64,000 bases of DNA. It comes from Fibrobacter sp. UWR2 (GTDB taxonomy: Bacteria; Fibrobacterota; Fibrobacteria; Fibrobacterales; Fibrobacteraceae). Numbering within the stretch: position 1 is the stretch's first letter; each line of letters begins with the position of its first letter. Location of the stretch: NCBI RefSeq assembly GCF_002210285.1, contig NZ_MWQE01000003.1:124001-188000 (forward strand), given 5' to 3'. Position numbers and translations under genes: made by a program. Shown here one piece after another: positions 47,426 through 57,787 of the stretch. The notes beneath the pieces were generated by a model. That model had not been told where the DNA came from and made no database searches. It saw nothing but the letters and a program-made list of their open reading frames with translations.

Positions 47426-47714
47426 AGTGGCTCCGTTGTTGTTTTAAAATGTAGTAAAAGACCTCCTCTTGTGATGACTTCCGGCCCGTTTTTACAGGCT
47501 TGTAAATTTTGAGTAACAAAGCGGATGCCGTTTTTTGTGATTTTTCACACGGGAACTAGTTAATTCACTTTTTGTTTACAAAAAAAACCGGGATTTAGGC
47601 AAAAAAAAAGAAAAATTATTGGCTTTTTGGCAAATAAAAGAATAAATTTGAGGACGGTGTGGCATATAAAAAAGCCGGTCTTTTTGGTATGCTTAGTTGG
47701 AAGGAAAACCATTG
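47426..47714 (+). promoter_or_regulatory. AT-rich upstream region of the fibro-slime gene
   Basis: About 290 bp with no gene. It holds repeated A and T tracts (around 47579-47587, 47602-47617, 47631-47645, 47668-47674), which may bend DNA or act as UP elements. TATGCT at about 47687 is a weak -10 candidate, and GGAAGGAA (about 47699-47706) is a strong ribosome-binding site for the ATG at 47715. No -35 box is convincing. Confidence 0.4.
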
Positions 47715-50700
47715 ATGGAAACAAAAACGATGAAAAACACAAAGAACAGCTTGTGGAAGTGGGTGTTGAGCGCCTCTCTCCTGTTGATGGCTGCCCAGAG
47801 TGCGTGGTCTGCATGTACGGGTACATTGCACTTCAAGAAGCCCGATGACTGGCCGACTGCATTTTTCGTGGCCATGAACAACATCCCTGATCAAGCTGGC
47901 AGTAAGGGTGGAATTGCGGCTACAAGATATAATGCCGCAACGGGTTTTTATGACTATGACTTGTCCTTGGCAGGTCCTGAAGCTCAGGAAACAATGTTCG
48001 CCCTGCAGACCCTTGCGGAAACATCGGCAGCGAAGCCGATGCATTACATTCTCTCTAGCGTGTGGGATGGTTCTGCCGCCTACGACCCGAACGTAGCGAA
48101 GAATGGCCGTGACATCGCCTGCCCGTCGGTGAAGGGCGCTACGGATGTCTGGGTGATGGAACACCCCAAGAAACCGGGTACGACGCTTGTCCAATACACC
48201 AAGCCCAATATCAAGTATTTCTACGTGCTCGTTCCCGATAACGCGGAATGGAAGGGCACCGTGCCGATGTATTCTCCGGATGGTACCTATGCCAGCCGTA
48301 AGGAAATGAGGGCCGACCCCAATATGTGTGGTTGGTACTATGTCGTGTGGCTCGACGAAACCCTGCCGGACAACTTGATCATCCTTACGGATGGTGACGA
48401 GGAACTGGACGAGGCTATCGGCCTTGATGGTGCCGATGCGGATGCGCTGACGCCGTTCCCGATGCAGACGTTCTTCGATGCCTTCCCGGATGCCGACAAG
48501 ATTTATTTTGTTGCCGATTTCGACGAACTTGACGATCCTTCCACCAAGGGTATCTTTACGACGGACCCGGGCATTGAAGGAACCTGCTCCTACAAGCTGG
48601 CCGCAATCCTTTATGATACCGATGCCTCCATGCATGGAGCCTTTACCTGTGACGCTTACCCCAATGTGGCTTCCAATAAGTGCTATTCTGCAACTGCCAA
48701 GTATAATTACCCCGGCAATGGACAAGACAACACTGTGCCCTGCATTGGCGTAACCACGGGAATCGTCAATTCCATCCTGGATACGGCTACCAGAAAGCCT
48801 GTCTACAATGCGGCTAGCGGATGCTTTGTCAGCCAGGAAGCTTTCGATGTCATGTTCAAGGAAACTCCGGGTATTAACTCCCAGCACTGTCGCGACGTGG
48901 TGTTCAAGCTCGCGAAGGACGGCCTGTGGGAATACGATAGCTATAACGAACCGACCGGAGCCTTTACTATCCTGAACGACCTTGCGGACTCTGTAAGACT
49001 CGGTACCTGCGCAGGTGATTGTAAGACAGCCGCTACGCTGCGTGAAGGCCTCGGTAACGTGAGGTATGGTATCGGTGAACAAGGGCAAACACCTACTCAA
49101 AATGGAATTTCACAGAAGGCTCAGACGCTCTTTCCTGGTGTTTCTGACTGGTCAGCCATTGAACCGACAACCGGCTTGCCATACATCGACCTCTATCCGG
49201 TCTCTGATAAAGAATTTGGCGATGGTAAGCATCCTAACGTTTACGACAACTCTACCTGGGATGCCCGTATCAAGGGCGATAACAACCAGATGTTCTGCTT
49301 TGAGTCCCACGCCAAGTTCACCTACCGCAACGGCATGCAGTTCTCGTTCCGTGGCGACGATGACATTTGGGTGTTTATCGACTACAAACTGGCCGTGGAC
49401 CTCGGTGGTACCCACCTTGCCGCTCCGGGCTATGTCAAGCTCGATACCCTTAACGGCCTGCATGGCAAACTGGTGCCGGGCCAGGATTACAACATCGATA
49501 TCTTCTTCTGTGACCGCCGTACCGACATGAGTAACGTGCGTATCAAGACGAACATGTACATCAAGCAGGCTACCGGTATCCAGCTCGAAACGACCCCTGT
49601 GTCTAGCGGTTTGCAGTTGGGCATTTGCGTGCTCAAGACTGGCGCCGGTGACTGTGCCTCCGTCGCTCTCGGTACCGCTGGCGGTGGCCAGGAAACGACC
49701 CAGGAATGTGGCGATGCTATCTCGACGAACGTCAATTACTCTATCGTGACCAAGAAGGGTGGCTTGAACCCGACGGGCTGCAGCGACTGTGCCGCACTCC
49801 CGCTCGGAGGCATTGTCCATGGTGGTATCAACCTCACCAACCCGAAGGTCCCGATTATCGATGTGGACAAGATTACCGGACTTGCTCCGGGTACCTACTA
49901 TCTGAAGATTACGGTTGACGGCAAGACGGAACCGTTCAAGTTCAAGGTTAAGGGTAACCTCGGCCTTGTCACCAAGGATGTCACGTTTGACAACGTTGAC
50001 GGTGAAATCGGCCTCAAGTATGATTCTGGTACGCAGTGGAAGTTTGTCGGCGAGTCCCTTGCCGGTAAGCGCATCCCGATTTACATCTCCGCTCCGGATG
50101 AATACGGTGGAGTGGATATCATTTCCGCCAAGGGCCAGGCCTACGAACTCAAGCTGTCGGCGGGTGCAACCCTCTACAAGACGCAGGACGGCACCGAGCC
50201 TCTCACGATCCCGTACACCGGCAGGGTGAACGACGACGGTATCGATACCTTCTGGGTCGATGTCCCGCTGGCCGGCCTCACGGCCTCCCCGACAGAGATT
50301 ACCGCCACGGTTGGCCCGACCAGCGCTACGCTCAAGTTCTATGCCCCGCGCCTCGTGTTTGCTAACCCGGATTCTACCGATGCTGCAGGCAATGTGATTA
50401 CCTGGTCGCCGATTAATCCTCCTGCCGACCCGAATGTCGACGAAAACGGCGAAGAATACTTCCACTGGGTGAGCGCTGATGTCGACTTCTACCTGCTGGT
50501 CGTAGACCCGTCTACAAACGAGATCTGTAAGGAATGCTACTACGCTCTTGACTTCGTTGGCAATTCTACTTCTACGGGTATCGTCGGTTCCGGACAGTAC
50601 ACATATGCTGACGGCACTACAAAGGACGGTAACCCGGTTATCGGATTCAACGAGGGCGTGTACCTTATCCGTATCCGTTCGAACCAGGAATACGCGACCG

Positions 50701-52241
50701 AGGCGGCGAGCATGGTCATCGGTTCTCCGGACTGCCCGCTCATCAGTTCGCCCTATACCAACATGCACTTCTACAAGCCGCCTGCACCGATGCCGCTCAT
50801 TGTCGACATGTTCGACGTGAAGGGCGAGCCGCTTGGCGAAATGAACATTCCGACCGACTTCCATATTGAATCTGCTGAGTACCTGGATGGTAAGGCCGAC
50901 TCCATGGCTATTATCTATGACCGTGCGTTCCATCCGGACTCTATCCCGACTTACATCTGCTTGAAGTTCGAAGACGACAGGAGCAGGCAGAAGAAGATCA
51001 ATCCGTACGAAATGGGCATTTCCAACAACAAGAAGGATACGGAAATGTGGTGCTCCACGCAGTTCGATTCTACTGCTATCCGCGTCGCATACACCAAGAG
51101 CCCGGATAATGGCCGTACACTTGCGTTCGCCATCGATTCCACCTTCACGGCCGACGTGAAGACCTTGGTGAACCCCGAAGACAAGATTGCCTCGTTCACG
51201 GTTTACAAGTGGAAGGGCAAGGAAGCCAAGACCTTCTTCGAGAAGGGCCTTACCGACCGCATGGCTCCGATTATCATCTCGGCCCGTGCAACGAACGAAG
51301 GCGATGGCGGCATGTTTGACCAGGTGAAGATCGAAGTTTCTGAACCGGTCGTGGTTACCGATGCGTCTAAGGGTAAGGAGGCATTCTCCTACTACCTGAA
51401 CTCCGCAATCGATATCGCTGACCCGCTGCAGCGCTACATCCACGTGAAGTCTCAGGCTAGCCCGCAGGACCGTAGTGCTACGCTGACCCTGCGTTACAAC
51501 AACTCTGACCCGAACAGCCCGACTCCGCACGTGGGCGACTACATCCGCTTCCGTGCCGACACGTTCATGTGGACCGATACCCTGAACGGTGCTGCTGCCG
51601 GTGCCGATACGCTGCGTCAGCCTACGGATGCCGACTGGCACTGGAACTCTCCGACGAACTACAATTCGACGGACCGCCTGCCGTCTCCGTGGGTACAAGT
51701 CGTGGGTGACGCCAAGATTGCCGTTACGACAATCAGCTACAACTACGCCGACCCGAGTTCTGTGAACGATACCACTCCTGTGGGCAATGTTATCCCGATC
51801 AAGACGAGCGACAACATCGACTTCGTCAAGGAAAACTACCCGGGTACGCTTGGCCACTTCGTGCAGTCCGACATGGGCTCCATCATTGGGTCCAAGGAAG
51901 AATATGCCACGGTCAACAAGGGTGATGTCAAGTTCTACTACTCTGTCGATTACTACACGAACCTCGGTGCGTTTGTTGCCCACCAGGGCGGCTCGATCGC
52001 CTGTACCGATTCGTTCTTCTCCTCTGACCCGTCGCAGAACCTGCCGGGTGACTGCGTCAAGAACCCGCGTAACTTCTACATCTCCTGGAACATGGTTTCC
52101 GAGAACCACCGTCTGGTGGGTACCGGTGCCTACATCACCAAGTTCACGTCTTACGTGAAGCTTGGCGACAAGGGCAAGAGAGCCAAGAAGGAACTGACCG
52201 AAGTCTGGGGCGTGAAGCGCGGCAAGGGTAAGGTGAAGTAA
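47715..52241 (+). CDS. Giant fibro-slime domain surface protein
   Basis: 1508 residues from ATG 47715, which has GGAAGGA upstream; a TTG at 47697 in frame is less likely. Signal peptide with an n-region of basic residues and hydrophobic core ending AAQSAWS before ACTG. Residues 455-615 form the fibro-slime domain (YDNSTWDARIKGDNNQMFCF, FSFRGDDDIWVFIDYKLAVD, GLHGKLVPGQDYNIDIFFCD), related to PA14-type carbohydrate-binding folds. Beta-rich domains follow, and the end is basic (VWGVKRGKGKVK). F. succinogenes fibro-slime proteins are associated with the outer membrane and cellulose binding. Monocistronic, with its own terminator. Confidence 0.88.
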   Translation: METKTMKNTKNSLWKWVLSASLLLMAAQSAWSACTGTLHFKKPDDWPTAFFVAMNNIPDQAGSKGGIAATRYNAATGFYDYDLSLAGPEAQETMFALQTLAETSAAKPMHYILSSVWDGSAAYDPNVAKNGRDIACPSVKGATDVWVMEHPKKPGTTLVQYTKPNIKYFYVLVPDNAEWKGTVPMYSPDGTYASRKEMRADPNMCGWYYVVWLDETLPDNLIILTDGDEELDEAIGLDGADADALTPFPMQTFFDAFPDADKIYFVADFDELDDPSTKGIFTTDPGIEGTCSYKLAAILYDTDASMHGAFTCDAYPNVASNKCYSATAKYNYPGNGQDNTVPCIGVTTGIVNSILDTATRKPVYNAASGCFVSQEAFDVMFKETPGINSQHCRDVVFKLAKDGLWEYDSYNEPTGAFTILNDLADSVRLGTCAGDCKTAATLREGLGNVRYGIGEQGQTPTQNGISQKAQTLFPGVSDWSAIEPTTGLPYIDLYPVSDKEFGDGKHPNVYDNSTWDARIKGDNNQMFCFESHAKFTYRNGMQFSFRGDDDIWVFIDYKLAVDLGGTHLAAPGYVKLDTLNGLHGKLVPGQDYNIDIFFCDRRTDMSNVRIKTNMYIKQATGIQLETTPVSSGLQLGICVLKTGAGDCASVALGTAGGGQETTQECGDAISTNVNYSIVTKKGGLNPTGCSDCAALPLGGIVHGGINLTNPKVPIIDVDKITGLAPGTYYLKITVDGKTEPFKFKVKGNLGLVTKDVTFDNVDGEIGLKYDSGTQWKFVGESLAGKRIPIYISAPDEYGGVDIISAKGQAYELKLSAGATLYKTQDGTEPLTIPYTGRVNDDGIDTFWVDVPLAGLTASPTEITATVGPTSATLKFYAPRLVFANPDSTDAAGNVITWSPINPPADPNVDENGEEYFHWVSADVDFYLLVVDPSTNEICKECYYALDFVGNSTSTGIVGSGQYTYADGTTKDGNPVIGFNEGVYLIRIRSNQEYATEAASMVIGSPDCPLISSPYTNMHFYKPPAPMPLIVDMFDVKGEPLGEMNIPTDFHIESAEYLDGKADSMAIIYDRAFHPDSIPTYICLKFEDDRSRQKKINPYEMGISNNKKDTEMWCSTQFDSTAIRVAYTKSPDNGRTLAFAIDSTFTADVKTLVNPEDKIASFTVYKWKGKEAKTFFEKGLTDRMAPIIISARATNEGDGGMFDQVKIEVSEPVVVTDASKGKEAFSYYLNSAIDIADPLQRYIHVKSQASPQDRSATLTLRYNNSDPNSPTPHVGDYIRFRADTFMWTDTLNGAAAGADTLRQPTDADWHWNSPTNYNSTDRLPSPWVQVVGDAKIAVTTISYNYADPSSVNDTTPVGNVIPIKTSDNIDFVKENYPGTLGHFVQSDMGSIIGSKEEYATVNKGDVKFYYSVDYYTNLGAFVAHQGGSIACTDSFFSSDPSQNLPGDCVKNPRNFYISWNMVSENHRLVGTGAYITKFTSYVKLGDKGKRAKKELTEVWGVKRGKGKVK

Positions 52242-52268
52242 CACTTGTCCAGACCCACATAGTTTTGT

Positions 52269-52792: not shown

Positions 52793-55700
52793 TTATTCAA
52801 GCCCGAGCAACTGCTTGATGGCGAATTCATCCATCGATGCAGGTAACAGCGCGCGTTCCTCGGGCGACACGTAGGCGAATTTGCGCTCGCTGGCGGGCCG
52901 TGCGCTCCTGTCCCTGAGTACGACTGGCGTGTCCTTCGTGGAGTAGAAGAACTTTCCGGTCTTGATGAACTTGTGCCTCTGGCACCCTTGCTTGATGGCC
53001 TCGTTCAGCGCCTTGAGGATCATCGGGCCTGCGCGGTCCACGTGGTGCAAATGCAACAGGCGCGAAAGCAGAAGCTCTTCGTGGATGGGGGCTTCGTGGT
53101 CTACGTAGAACTTCATCTGCACGATAAGCGCGATGGCGTCGAGTTCCGCGATGGGTTTGTCGTGTGCGGTACCCTCGATTTTCGGGTGTATCGCCTGGTA
53201 CGGTACCGTCGCGATTTCCGGAGTGCTCTGCGCGGATTCTTCGCTGGAATTTTCTTCGTCGGAGGGAGGCGGCGCCACGCTCTGCTCGATAGCGATCGTC
53301 GTGACGATGTGGCTTGCCTCGTCGTTGTACGACACGTACCAGAACGGAGTCCAGATGGTGATGACCTTCCAGCCCAGCTGGCGTAGCATCACGGGGCGCA
53401 CGTATTCGCGGTCTTCTACGGATTCACGGAAGCGCTCGGTGGTGCAGTCGTCCTCGATGACGGCGAGAATGCGGTTGCTGTTGTTCGCGTCGATGACGAT
53501 AGGCCCGACCGGGATGCCGCTGCCGGCGAAACTCGGTTCGACCTTGACGTTTTCGTTTGCGAGCAGGTCCATGACCTGCGGGCGCAAGACGGAATCGGCG
53601 ATATGCGAGTCGTTCGATGCCGGGACGCTCTTTTTCGCAAGGTAGACAATCCAGTCGCGGAGCAGTCCGGGCTTGGCATTCGCCTGAATGTCGATATCGT
53701 GCTTGGTGGAGAACACCTGCATCTCGTGACGGGCGAGCGTGGTGCAGACGGCAAGCTTGCGTTCGGCAGAATTCTTGTCGATGCCTTCGGGTTCGGCAAG
53801 TACGTAGATGACGTCGCGGAACTTGTCCGTGGCCCTGTCGGGTGTCTTCACGTAGAAACTGATGGCCGGGCTTGTCTGCGCGAAGAACATGTCGGCAGCG
53901 GAACCCTTGGTGACGAGCGCCTTGATGGCGGCCTCGATCTCGTGGCAACGCGCTTCGCTGAAGGCGATAATCCCGAGGGTCTGCCCGGGGTGCTTTTCGG
54001 CGTGCTGTACCGCGGCCTTCGCGATGTCCTTTACCTTGTCTGCAATAATCTTCAGGGAATCGCGCCGCGGGGTCTTTTTCATCGGGAGCGGGAACTGCTT
54101 GATGCCGCCGTTGTAGATGCGGTCGTTCGCAAACTGGAACAGCGTGGGGTCGGAATAGAAATCCGAGAACCAGAGTTCGCGCGTGGGGATGCCCCTGCGT
54201 AGTGCCGCCGTCATGATGTTCTCGAGGAAGAACGTCGTGTGCGGGGGAGTCACGTCGAGGAAGGCGTCGAATGCCTGCTCCTCGAGGGTCGGCACGTGCG
54301 GGTTGCCGATAAGGATAGTCTTCTTGCCCTGCAGTACGAGCGGCATGGCCTCGGCGACCGAGATGCAGTCCGCGTCGAGGAGGATTACGGTATCGTACTG
54401 GTAGTCCTTGCTCTGGGTGAACGCCTCGTCGATGTTCAGTACCGTGAGTTTGCCGGTATCGGCGATGGCGTGCACTTCGCGGAAGTTCGCGTTGCAAAGT
54501 TGGTCGAGCAACGTGCGGTACTGCTTACTCTGCTGCGTGTGCGCCTTGGGGGCGCATGCGAAAATCTCGGGGAAGTTCTTGTTGATGAGCTGCACCTGGG
54601 TGCCCGCCCAGGCGTGCGTGCAGGCCTGGACAATTTCGTCGCTGATGGCGCCCGGGTTCTGCAGGTATTGCCGCAGGCTCTTGCAGCCGTATTCCTCAAC
54701 CTGGTTGAAGAGTGCCGTGAGCTGCAGGTGCGATTCGAGACTGCCCCAGCTTGTTTTCCACTGGCTAATCTTTGCAAGGCATTTGTCAAAGCTCAGGCTT
54801 TCGAGCGGGGTGTCGAGCCCGAGTTCCTTGGTGAGGATTCGGGTTGTCGAGAGCAGGTCCTGGATGCTCTGGTCAAAGTCGGCAAACTGCGGGAACAACT
54901 GCTTGAACTGGTGCCAGTGCTCGAGCAGGGAGAGCATCAGTTCCAAATGCGGATCGTCCTTGAACTTCTCGCGGAAGTTGTACAGGTAGGTAATCTTCGC
55001 GTTCAGGGTTACCCAGTTGGATTTCTCGTAGAGCCAGTCCTTGCCGAGCAGGTGGTTGCCGAGAACCGCGGTATCCTTGTAGGCGCGCTTGTTTTCTTGC
55101 AACTCGATGAGCGTGTCGATAAGGTCGAGCAGGTGTGCATCCGATGTGACGTCTTTCGGGTGCTTGAGCACCTTGAGCAGGCGCTTGCGCGAATTGCGGT
55201 AGCGGTCGGAAAGGCCCTTGAGGGTCGCCTTCAGGCTGTCCTCGAATTCGTCACGGAACGAGAGGATATTCTCGTCGACGGCGTTGTCGGTGTAGATGTC
55301 GGATGTCTGCCTGTGGTAGCGGACCCAGCTGTCGCCGGCTTCGGGGAGCGCACGCAGCGTGTCCTGGTAGGCGCTCCAGCTGGAGGACTTCAAATCCCAG
55401 TTCTCGAATTCCGGAGTGTTCGCGTCGAAGTTCTTGCGGATGAGCGCGATGACCTCGGCGAGTAGCGGCAGGTATATGCCTGTCGGGAAGAAACTCTCCT
55501 TTTCGAAGAGCTCTACCAGCGGGCCGAGCGTCTTGGCCTTTTCTTCGGCTTCGCCGAATGCCTTGAGGATCTCGTCGCGCTTTTCTGGCGGTAGGTCGTT
55601 TGCGGTGACGTTCTCGAATGTCCTGCGTGCAGTAAGCCCGTTCTGCTTGAAGTAGATGTCTACAATCTGCTGTAGCGTATTGCGCAGGGCGTTGAACTGC

Positions 55701-56884
55701 TTGTAGTTGAGCGTGTTCGATTCCTGGAAAATCGAATCCATGTACTTGCCGCGGATTTTCGGGGTCTGCGTGAACTCGGCAAGGATATTGGTGAGGCTCG
55801 TCTTCGAGGGCTCGACCTCGCGGTTCACGGCCCTGTAGTAAGAGGCAAAATAGTTCCTGGCCGCATTCACCTGGTCGACAAGCGTATGGCGTTCGGGGCC
55901 GGCGTACGACCTGAACGGCGGTTTCCATGTCTGGTTGAATGTCTGCTGCGTGACGGCACGGCGCGTGATGACGAGCGTGTCCTTGCCCTTGGAGAGGGAT
56001 TCCGCGACAATGTTTGCGGCAACACGCATCTTCTGCGTACCCGGGAGCGACTGGATGGCGTAACCGAGCGTGTTCTCCTGGAGCGCGTCGATGGTGACCT
56101 TCGTCGTGTGCGAGTCCGTGGTGTAGAGGAAATGGTGCTCGGTCGGGTTGAACAGCTGGTCGAAATCGGCGTCGTCAAAGACGGATTCCTTGACCTGGAA
56201 ACCGTCTTCGCCTAGGAGCGAACTCACGAAGGAGTTGCTGTCGATACGCTTGTCGCCGTAGAAATCCTCCATGTTCTTCTTGAGGCGGAGCCTGCTGGAA
56301 TTGAGGAAGGCGAGGCAGATGCCGTGGCGAGTGAACTTCCAGTTGCGCTCGGAGGCGACGGCCTTTTCAAAAAGTGAAAAGTAAAGCTGGATGTTGAATT
56401 GCCCGTTGACGGTGGCGTCTTCGGCCTTCGGGAGCGACATGTCGGCGAGCCTTTCGCGGAGCACGATGTTCTCCAAGGGCGGCATCTTCGAAAGCGATAG
56501 CGACTTGAAGTCGGGACTCACGTCGACGGGCACGAGCAGGGTCGGGGCGAGCGCATTGCCGTCCCATTTGAGGAACCCGAGGAGCAGGTACAGGTCGGAC
56601 TTGCCGAAGTCCTGGGCCTTGTCCTTGAAAACGCGGGTAAAGAGTTCGGTACGTTCCTTTTTCTGCTGGGCGGTAAAGCCCTGCGATTCGGGGAGGAAGG
56701 AATCGAGCGGGAGTGTCGAACCGGATTGCAACCACCTGTCATAGAAGGCGTCGCCTGCCTCGAGCAGGAGCGGCGTCTGGAACTCGTACTTTGTCGAAAA
56801 ATGGAGCAAGCGGTCCTTGTTGTCATAAAGGGCTGCTTCTTGACATATCTTCAAAACGACGGACGATGGTGTAACGTGCGACAT
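52793..56884 (-). CDS. SF1-helicase / Vsr-like nuclease / DUF3320-like protein with degenerate ATPase motifs
   Basis: 1363 residues. The order resembles defence-type DUF4011 helicase-nuclease fusions: N-terminal domain, SF1 helicase core split by about 500 helical residues, Vsr/MTES_1575-like nuclease (about 1105-1175), C-terminal DUF3320-like helical domain (about 1245-1330). Helicase motifs are recognisable but broken: Walker A reads SLPGTQKM (about 279-286) instead of GPPGTGKS; Walker B reads LLDADC (about 835-840) instead of FDEAS; GNPHVP replaces GDPKQLPP; the TRAR-type motif reads TTLAR. The nuclease keeps VIDAN and AVIEDD, and RQLGWKVITIWTPFWY. It is probably an ATP-independent scaffold or nuclease. 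TATATT lies six bases before the ATG. Confidence 0.7.
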   Translation of the reverse strand: MSHVTPSSVVLKICQEAALYDNKDRLLHFSTKYEFQTPLLLEAGDAFYDRWLQSGSTLPLDSFLPESQGFTAQQKKERTELFTRVFKDKAQDFGKSDLYLLLGFLKWDGNALAPTLLVPVDVSPDFKSLSLSKMPPLENIVLRERLADMSLPKAEDATVNGQFNIQLYFSLFEKAVASERNWKFTRHGICLAFLNSSRLRLKKNMEDFYGDKRIDSNSFVSSLLGEDGFQVKESVFDDADFDQLFNPTEHHFLYTTDSHTTKVTIDALQENTLGYAIQSLPGTQKMRVAANIVAESLSKGKDTLVITRRAVTQQTFNQTWKPPFRSYAGPERHTLVDQVNAARNYFASYYRAVNREVEPSKTSLTNILAEFTQTPKIRGKYMDSIFQESNTLNYKQFNALRNTLQQIVDIYFKQNGLTARRTFENVTANDLPPEKRDEILKAFGEAEEKAKTLGPLVELFEKESFFPTGIYLPLLAEVIALIRKNFDANTPEFENWDLKSSSWSAYQDTLRALPEAGDSWVRYHRQTSDIYTDNAVDENILSFRDEFEDSLKATLKGLSDRYRNSRKRLLKVLKHPKDVTSDAHLLDLIDTLIELQENKRAYKDTAVLGNHLLGKDWLYEKSNWVTLNAKITYLYNFREKFKDDPHLELMLSLLEHWHQFKQLFPQFADFDQSIQDLLSTTRILTKELGLDTPLESLSFDKCLAKISQWKTSWGSLESHLQLTALFNQVEEYGCKSLRQYLQNPGAISDEIVQACTHAWAGTQVQLINKNFPEIFACAPKAHTQQSKQYRTLLDQLCNANFREVHAIADTGKLTVLNIDEAFTQSKDYQYDTVILLDADCISVAEAMPLVLQGKKTILIGNPHVPTLEEQAFDAFLDVTPPHTTFFLENIMTAALRRGIPTRELWFSDFYSDPTLFQFANDRIYNGGIKQFPLPMKKTPRRDSLKIIADKVKDIAKAAVQHAEKHPGQTLGIIAFSEARCHEIEAAIKALVTKGSAADMFFAQTSPAISFYVKTPDRATDKFRDVIYVLAEPEGIDKNSAERKLAVCTTLARHEMQVFSTKHDIDIQANAKPGLLRDWIVYLAKKSVPASNDSHIADSVLRPQVMDLLANENVKVEPSFAGSGIPVGPIVIDANNSNRILAVIEDDCTTERFRESVEDREYVRPVMLRQLGWKVITIWTPFWYVSYNDEASHIVTTIAIEQSVAPPPSDEENSSEESAQSTPEIATVPYQAIHPKIEGTAHDKPIAELDAIALIVQMKFYVDHEAPIHEELLLSRLLHLHHVDRAGPMILKALNEAIKQGCQRHKFIKTGKFFYSTKDTPVVLRDRSARPASERKFAYVSPEERALLPASMDEFAIKQLLGLE

Positions 56885-56896
56885 GCTATGAATATA
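56885..56896 (-). promoter_or_regulatory. Candidate leaderless promoter of the 1363-residue gene
   Basis: Minus strand TATATT (56896-56891), CATAGC, ATG 56884: the exact six-base spacing. Confidence 0.5.
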
Positions 56897-56920
56897 AGAT
56901 TTTTTCGTGTTTTAGAGTGT

Positions 56921-57787
56921 TTACAGAATCTGATATATCAAATAAATAGCATCGGCAAGCCCGATAGGCGCGGGCGAGGCGGCAAGGCCCGCCTTGAAAC
57001 ATACCCGCCCGAGTAGCGTTTCCCTGCTTAGGCCCGCTTCGCGGTCCTGCCGCAGGCTGTGGGCGAGCTCGCGCTTGGAAAGCTTCTTGCCGGCCGTGTC
57101 TACGATAAGGGGGTGGTGCAGGTATGCAGGCGGCGTCTCGCGCCCGAGCATGCGCATCAGCGCAATCTGGCGGGCGGTAGAACTCAGGATGTCCTCGCCG
57201 CGCACGACATGCGTGATGCTTTCGTCTATATCGTCGACGCATACGGCGAACTGGTAGGTCCATTGCCCGTCGCGGTCGCGTATGGGGAAGTCTCCGCACT
57301 GCTTTTTCGGGTTCTCGTCGAAGTCGCCGAGCCGCAGGTCGTGCCAGTGGATGGTCTCGTCGGGAACGATGACCCGCAGGTTATGCGGTGCGTCGGCTGC
57401 GTGGGCTTCTGCGGCATGCAGGCACTTCCCGCTATAAACGATTTCGCCGGTCGCGCTCTTGGGGTTTTCTGCCTCGAGCTGCTTGCGGCTGCAGTAGCAG
57501 GGGTAAACGAGGCCTTCGCGCTTGAGTTTTTCGAGGGCTGCCTCGTAGACGGGCTTTCTGTTACTTTGTATGCTGTCGCTGTCGTATTCGAACCCGAACC
57601 ATTCCAGGTCCTCGTAGATGCTCCTGATGTATTCGGGGCGTGCGCGGCTCTGGTCGTGGTCTTCGATGCGTAAGTGGATTGAAAGGTTCCATTTTTTCGC
57701 GGCAGCCCACACGTATAGAGCCGAAAGCAGGTGGCCTTCGTGCAGGTAGCCCGTGGGGCTTGGCGCAAATCGGATTTTTCCAGGCAT
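56921..57787 (-). CDS. gluQ: Glutamyl-Q tRNA(Asp) synthetase
   Basis: 288 residues, the length of GluQ-RS and much shorter than GltX because the anticodon-binding domain is absent. Class I signatures: HIGH-type PSPTGYLHEGHLLSALY (about 10-26) and GKKLSKRE as the KMSKS motif (about 243-250). The zinc site is CYCSRKQL (about 100-107) with YSGKCLHA. It attaches glutamate to queuosine 34 of tRNA-Asp. TAATAT lies seven bases before the ATG. It lies 36 bp upstream of the large helicase-like gene on the same strand. Confidence 0.9.
   Translation of the reverse strand: MPGKIRFAPSPTGYLHEGHLLSALYVWAAAKKWNLSIHLRIEDHDQSRARPEYIRSIYEDLEWFGFEYDSDSIQSNRKPVYEAALEKLKREGLVYPCYCSRKQLEAENPKSATGEIVYSGKCLHAAEAHAADAPHNLRVIVPDETIHWHDLRLGDFDENPKKQCGDFPIRDRDGQWTYQFAVCVDDIDESITHVVRGEDILSSTARQIALMRMLGRETPPAYLHHPLIVDTAGKKLSKRELAHSLRQDREAGLSRETLLGRVCFKAGLAASPAPIGLADAIYLIYQIL

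What the first reader, a model, noticed from the sequence alone, without database searches (positions are those of the whole stretch)
52793..56884. Helicase-nuclease fusion whose helicase motifs are all degenerate
The 1363-residue protein keeps the architecture of DUF4011-type SF1 helicase / Vsr-like nuclease / DUF3320 proteins, many of which occur in defence islands, but every ATPase motif I can align is altered: SLPGTQKM for GPPGTGKS, LLDADC for FDEAS, GNPHVP for GDPKQLPP, FYSD in place of the usual HYRS, and TTLAR for TRAR. The frame is open over 4 kb and the nuclease acidic residues (VIDAN, AVIEDD) persist, so this is not simple decay. It may be an ATP-independent nuclease, a scaffold, or a regulator derived from a defence enzyme. 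It sits among housekeeping genes with its own promoter.
Basis: partly seen in the sequence, partly recalled or inferred. Interest (0 to 1): 0.75.

Follow-up and report, generated by a model that had tools for sequence, protein, structure and literature searches.

The report
Core pseudo-helicase/pseudo-nuclease of Fibrobacteraceae
A large bacterial protein that descends from a phage-defence helicase-nuclease has lost both of its active sites, yet a whole lineage of fibre-digesting gut bacteria keeps it at the same chromosomal place under strong selection, so it probably does a new, non-enzymatic job.

Summary
The gene is real: minus strand, 56884..52793, 1363 aa, intact frame. The helicase claim holds and is not private to this copy. 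It has positional orthologues in 78 of 80 genomes of its genus (Fibrobacter) and in 15 genomes of six other Fibrobacteraceae genera. In 73 aligned orthologues the Q-motif Gln, Walker A first and third Gly, Walker B Asp and Glu, motif III Gln, motif V Glu and motif VI Arg are never canonical; nine functional-type relatives all keep them. AlphaFold (pLDDT 86) still gives an SF1B/Upf1-like core. Only Glu1144, Asp1146 and the following helix Asp/Arg persist. dN/dS (median 0.065) is lower than for neighbouring gluQ (0.12). Synteny and a TATATT promoter placed for a leaderless mRNA are conserved, and the gene maps to one clade. Best reading: a domesticated double pseudoenzyme from the PDC-S37/Hhe/ProA defence kind, now a nucleic-acid-binding scaffold or sensor comparable to RecC or FASTKD4. 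Pseudoenzyme status is well supported; ligand and process are inferred.

The parts
52793..56884 (-). Pseudo-helicase/pseudo-nuclease gene, 1363 aa, intact frame, ATG at 56884
   Evidence: ORF and translation; orthologues in 78 of 80 genus genomes and 15 genomes of six other family genera
56450..56638 (-). DUF4011-like N-terminal region (residues 83-145)
   Evidence: Pfam PF13195, 17.7 bits, below cut-off here but above cut-off in most genus genomes, up to 29.5 bits
56027..56050 (-). Degenerate Walker A, residues 279-286 SLPGTQKM (canonical GPPGTGKS)
   Evidence: first and third Gly lost in 73/73 orthologues, Lys kept in 58/73, Ser/Thr kept in 3/73
54365..54388 (-). Degenerate Walker B, residues 833-840 VILLDADC (canonical VIFDEASQ)
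   Evidence: gapless alignment: Asp to Leu or Thr, Glu to Asp in 73/73
54290..54310 (-). Degenerate motif III, about residues 859-865 (GNPHVP in place of GDxxQLPP)
   Evidence: Gln absent in 73/73; Gly kept in 73/73
54107..54181 (-). Degenerate motif IV region, residues 902-926 (canonical WHYRS)
   Evidence: Arg kept in 1/73
53711..53755 (-). Degenerate motif VI, residues 1044-1058 LAVCTTLARHEMQVF (canonical NVxxTRAK)
   Evidence: arginine-finger Arg to Leu or His in 72/72
53339..53596 (-). Vsr/EDxHD-type nuclease-like domain (residues 1097-1182) without the catalytic Asp and His
   Evidence: Pfam MTES_1575 33 bits; fold match to I-Bth0305I catalytic domain 3r3p, prob 1.00; residue census
53027..53146 (-). 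DUF3320-like winged-helix region (residues 1247-1286), in the most constrained part of the protein
   Evidence: Pfam PF11784 22.2 bits; cullin-WHB-like winged-helix matches; lowest dN/dS of all segments, median 0.041 for residues 1225-1363
56891..56896 (-). -10-like TATATT ending 6 nt before the ATG, behind an A-tract at 56900-56905; predicted leaderless transcript
   Evidence: 56/56 genus orthologues; sequence
56921..57787 (-). Upstream neighbour, GluQ-like (glutamyl-Q tRNA(Asp) synthetase family by similarity), conserved synteny; 36-bp gap
   Evidence: synteny map; it also matches GltX-like proteins at lower score in relatives

Best explanation
A double pseudoenzyme: an ancestral DUF4011 / SF1B helicase / Vsr-like nuclease / DUF3320 protein of the PDC-S37-Hhe-ProA defence kind was fixed once in the ancestor of one Fibrobacteraceae clade, lost ATP turnover and DNA cleavage, and was kept vertically as a core gene. 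Shown: common descent, loss of both canonical catalytic sites, retained SF1B and Vsr-like folds (predicted), purifying selection, positional orthology. Inferred: it works without catalysis, most likely as a nucleic-acid-binding scaffold or sensor. The helicase-shaped groove and the Vsr-like and winged-helix tail would hold a strand or structured RNA/DNA and a partner protein, as RecC and FASTKD4 do. Confidence by step: pseudoenzyme status 0.9; domesticated core function rather than immunity 0.7; nucleic-acid scaffold in particular 0.5.
For: All ATPase positions lost in 73/73 orthologues and present in 9/9 functional-type relatives. Nuclease Asp 0/72 and His 0/72, with Glu 72/72, Asp 72/72 and helix Arg 72/72 kept. 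SF1B fold matches Aquarius, Senataxin, Sen1, Upf1 and Dna2 at E down to 3e-9, prob 1.0. Vsr-like fold matches I-Bth0305I and NGO0050, prob 0.99-1.00. dN/dS 0.03-0.09 in the 25 closest pairs; median 0.065 against gluQ 0.122, dnaQ 0.050, topoisomerase 0.035. Same neighbours across seven genera. Presence falls on one clade of a topoisomerase tree, SH-aLRT 96, with one exception. Orthologues form one group apart from functional-type relatives. Intact relatives in only 3/80 genus genomes. Precedents: RecC nuclease-like domain without catalysis (PMC1185551), FASTKD4 Vsr-like domain binding RNA without cleavage (PMC11879112), Utp25 pseudohelicase (PMC9539457).
Against: No direct evidence of nucleic-acid binding and no partner identified. 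The Walker A Lys is kept in 58/73 and Walker B Glu became Asp in 73/73, so some nucleotide or metal binding is not excluded. Nuclease Glu and Asp are invariant, so an altered active site is conceivable. Protein identity within the genus (40-57% for most pairs with the window copy) is lower than that of its neighbours, unlike a strongly constrained core machine.
Confidence: 0.65

Rival explanations
1. A non-catalytic immunity factor: it still protects against phage or plasmids, for example by binding foreign nucleic acid or as a decoy or guard, fixed as a core gene.
For: Ancestry in the PDC-S37/Hhe/ProA defence families. Its protein sequence diverges faster than most neighbours. A DUF4011 gene is a core gene beside a defence hotspot in Pseudomonas aeruginosa (PMC10250203).
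Against: Nearly universal vertical presence in the genus without a gain/loss patchwork, low dN/dS and a housekeeping neighbourhood. Intact relatives in the genus are rare, so it is not simply their regulator.
Confidence: 0.2
2. An ATP-independent nuclease, using the retained Glu1144/Asp1146/Asp1158 with a rearranged active site.
For: Glu and Asp on strand 3 are invariant (72/72) and the helix Asp is Asp in 70/72, Glu in 2; an acidic D-x-N-N loop nearby is strongly conserved.
Against: The strand-2 Asp and the His, whose pairing forms the Vsr active site (D51/H69, PMC11879112), are lost in every orthologue; the helix-A Glu is kept in only 4/72.
Confidence: 0.1
3. A slow or altered ATPase that still binds nucleotide with a non-canonical pocket and acts as a switch.
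For: Pro, Gly4 and usually Lys of the P-loop are kept; Walker B reads L-D-A-[D/E] in nearly all orthologues; the P-loop region is modelled with high confidence.
Against: Third P-loop Gly replaced by bulky or acidic residues; Ser/Thr, Walker B Asp, motif III Gln, motif V Glu and arginine finger all lost; some clades also lose the Lys (Trp, Ala, Gly).
Confidence: 0.08
4. A decaying pseudogene with an accidentally open frame.
For: Motif loss itself; one genome has an in-frame stop (G028) and one a split frame (G058).
Against: dN/dS 0.03-0.09 over many pairs, full-length frames of about 1360 codons open in nearly all orthologues, conserved promoter.
Confidence: 0.01

Closest known systems
PADLOC PDC-S37 (phage-defence candidate)
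   Same: Homology over most of the length and domain order, 380 bits, E 6.5e-114
   Different: An intact member in the same genus scores 1408 bits with canonical motifs (L059); the window family has lost both canonical active sites
Hhe and ProA anti-phage proteins (NCBIfam NF042953, NF058533)
   Same: Shared C-terminal helicase 2A, nuclease and DUF3320 regions (100 and 261 bits)
   Different: Far below the curated cut-offs of 2000 and 1500 bits; the Hhe protein examined (L181) has intact helicase and nuclease motifs
RecC of RecBCD
   Same: Works-like analogy: nuclease-like domain without catalysis that guides DNA (PMC1185551)
   Different: Not the same family by sequence; the genome has its own RecC (PF04257 hit in G000)
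FASTKD4 (Vsr-like RAP-domain protein)
   Same: Vsr-like fold that binds RNA without cleavage (PMC11879112); Foldseek lists several T. gondii mitoribosomal large-subunit proteins among the nearest folds (whether these are RAP proteins was not checked)
   Different: Mitochondrial, no SF1 helicase part, no sequence homology shown here
Utp25 pseudohelicase
   Same: Conserved helicase fold whose motifs are dispensable (PMC9539457)
   Different: DEAD-box fold, eukaryotic, no nuclease domain

Membership tests
PDC-S37 / DUF4011-helicase-MTES_1575-DUF3320 defence family | Profile homology over the protein | tested here: met
   PDC-S37 E 6.5e-114 in three stretches; family orthologues 254-434 bits
PDC-S37 / DUF4011-helicase-MTES_1575-DUF3320 defence family | Functional SF1 ATPase motifs | tested here: not met
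   0 of 73 orthologues canonical at the Q-motif, P-loop Gly, Walker B, motif III, V and VI positions
PDC-S37 / DUF4011-helicase-MTES_1575-DUF3320 defence family | Vsr-type nuclease Asp and His | tested here: not met
   0 of 72 each
Hhe or ProA anti-phage proteins | Score over NCBIfam cut-off | tested here: not met
   100.5 of 2000 and 261.3 of 1500 bits
Defence-island gene | Patchy distribution and defence neighbourhood | tested here: not met
   78 of 80 genomes of the genus, constant housekeeping neighbours
SF1B (Upf1-like) helicase fold | Fold | tested here: met
   Foldseek E down to 3e-9, prob 1.00, on a predicted model
SF1B (Upf1-like) helicase fold | Unwinding or ATPase activity | not testable with these tools
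   needs an assay
Anti-phage function | Protection against phage | not testable with these tools
   needs deletion or expression tests

The most novel reading that the evidence does not exclude
A former phage-defence helicase-nuclease has been exapted, with both active sites dead, into a lineage-specific core nucleic-acid scaffold (a RecC/FASTKD4-like component of DNA or RNA processing) found only in one Fibrobacteraceae clade.
Probability: 0.45. Interest if true: 0.75.

Novelty: new variant of a known kind. Interest (0 to 1): 0.6.

Why it matters
Movement of immune enzymes into housekeeping roles is often proposed, but clean cases with synteny, a single origin and loss of both catalytic sites are uncommon (own knowledge). 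Here intact relatives and the dead core copy coexist in the same genus, so the change of function can be tested directly. Defence-gene finders can also mislabel this core protein as a defence system, because it hits PDC-S37 at E 6.5e-114.

Tried and rejected
Simple decay: rejected by dN/dS. Lone mutated copy with intact orthologues: rejected. Surviving nuclease by 'VIDAN': rejected by the gapless alignment. Substitute for a missing RecC: rejected, RecC is present. Intact version at the gluQ locus of genera lacking the gene (g25, g26, g27): looked for and not found. PDB sequence searches gave no homologue. Paper searches on DUF4011, DUF3320 and PDC-S37 gave no functional study of this protein. 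An initial reading of Walker B as Asp kept / Glu to Ala was dropped after the gapless alignment showed Asp to Leu and Glu to Asp.
Full report
What is there. The gene lies on the minus strand, 56884..52793, with a 1363-residue open frame. Pfam sees DUF4011, MTES_1575 and DUF3320 only below their cut-offs, while PADLOC PDC-S37 matches at 380 bits, E 6.5e-114, and NCBIfam ProA and Hhe match far below their curated cut-offs. So it is a clear but remote relative of DUF4011 defence proteins.

Distribution. A protein search found it in 60 of 61 genomes of the genus looked at first and in none of the 40 others. A profile of 41 orthologues (A1) over 168 genomes of the phylum found it in 78 of 80 genomes of the genus; the two misses are 65% and 71% complete. 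It also occurs in 15 genomes of six other genera of the family, at about 30-39% identity to the window protein. It is missing from genera g25, g26, g27 (apart from one weak partial match, G122) and g31. Named records show these to be Fibrobacter and Fibrobacteraceae, including F. intestinalis ATCC 43854. At the gluQ locus of genera lacking the gene nothing like it was found. On a topoisomerase tree the carriers form one clade with SH-aLRT 96; the only non-carrier inside is G165, whose placement disagrees with its assigned genus and may be a mixed assembly. The genome-contig scan used only two short peptide patterns and other phyla could not be centred on, so absence beyond the family is shown only within those limits.

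Synteny. The order topoisomerase, NagZ/Bgl-like, DnaQ-like, 196-aa protein, GluQ-like, this gene, SPOR-domain protein, large repetitive protein recurs across the family. A few loci lack one neighbour, and several genus genomes keep only gluQ, SPOR and the large gene. The neighbours' names are mine, from sequence similarity recalled, not from a family search. This is positional orthology and vertical descent, not a mobile island.

Helicase motifs. In alignments of 58 genus and 15 family orthologues with 9 functional-type relatives (three from the same genus, one Acidimicrobiaceae, five plasmid-borne), the functional-type proteins have Q, GPPG[T/S]GKS, DEAS, GDxxQ, HYR, QGDERD and [T/S]R[A/S] in 9 of 9. 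'Functional-type' means canonical motifs, not assayed activity. In the orthologues: Q-motif Gln 0/73; Walker A first Gly 0/73, third Gly 0/73, Lys 58/73, Ser/Thr 3/73; Walker B Asp 0/73 (Leu or Thr) and Glu replaced by Asp 73/73; motif III Gln absent 73/73; motif IV Arg 1/73; motif V Glu 0/72; motif VI Arg 0/72. Structural positions stay: P-loop Gly4 73/73, motif III Gly 73/73, motif V Arg-Asp 72/72. Hydrolysis is therefore very unlikely; weak nucleotide binding cannot be excluded.

Nuclease. The nuclease-like domain aligns almost without gaps to active-type relatives. The active-type 'FYIDIAVRDPNKPGRYMLAVECDGATYHS' lies against 'IPVGPIVIDANNSNRILAVIEDDCTTERF'. The His is absent in 72/72, the helix-A Glu is kept in 4/72, and the strand-3 Glu and Asp are kept in 72/72. 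In Vsr the Asp51/His69 pair forms the active site, and FASTKD4, with a Vsr-like fold, binds RNA without cleaving it (PMC11879112). One caution: two of the functional-type paralogues (L060, L061) themselves depart from the nuclease consensus.

Structure. AlphaFold of residues 164-1363 gave mean pLDDT 85.9; Foldseek matches are Aquarius, Senataxin, Sen1, Dna2 and Upf1. Residues 1086-1363 gave pLDDT 79.9, pTM 0.49, matching the catalytic domain of I-Bth0305I and NGO0050 with probability 0.99-1.00 but E-values of only 0.025-0.14, and cullin-type winged helices.

Selection and expression. dN/dS is 0.03-0.09 in the 25 closest pairs and lowest in the C-terminal segment. In matched genome pairs the median is 0.065, against gluQ 0.122, NagZ/Bgl 0.074, dnaQ 0.050, SPOR 0.043 and topoisomerase 0.035. 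Synonymous sites are near saturation in the more distant pairs. All 56 genus orthologues carry an A-rich stretch and TATATT, which ends 6 nt before the ATG in 53. That spacing predicts a leaderless transcript; this is inference, not measured.

Interpretation. The facts fit a domesticated double pseudoenzyme. Because it is nearly universal in the genus while intact relatives occur in 3 of 80 genomes, it cannot merely regulate them. The retained helicase groove, Vsr-like and winged-helix parts suggest nucleic-acid binding; RecC (PMC1185551), FASTKD4 and Utp25 (PMC9539457) are precedents for how such proteins work, not relatives by membership. RecC itself is present in the genome. A defence origin rests on homology to PDC-S37, Hhe and ProA; that the ancestor itself acted in defence is inferred. 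The specific process remains unknown.

Noticed in passing
window 56891-56905 (-) and 55 other genus orthologues: A-tract plus TATATT ending 6 nt before the ATG in nearly all orthologues, predicting a leaderless mRNA; only one or two other plausible gene starts in the window have this spacing.
   Followed up: partly
L060, L061 (genomes G006, G046): 1963-1986-aa DUF4011 helicases with intact ATPase motifs but nuclease Glu changed to Leu (ILCDG) and His to Arg/Lys, possibly another dead nuclease.
   Followed up: no
L058 (G058) and L024 (G028): Orthologue split into two overlapping frames in one genome and interrupted by a TAG in another; decay or assembly error.
   Followed up: no
G165 (L139, L165): Topoisomerase groups with genus Fibrobacter although the genome is assigned to another genus, and it lacks this gene; possibly a mixed assembly.
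   Followed up: no
window 49152-52244 (-): A 1030-aa open frame runs antisense to the 1514-aa repetitive protein gene at 47697-52241 (+); probably a composition effect.
   Followed up: no
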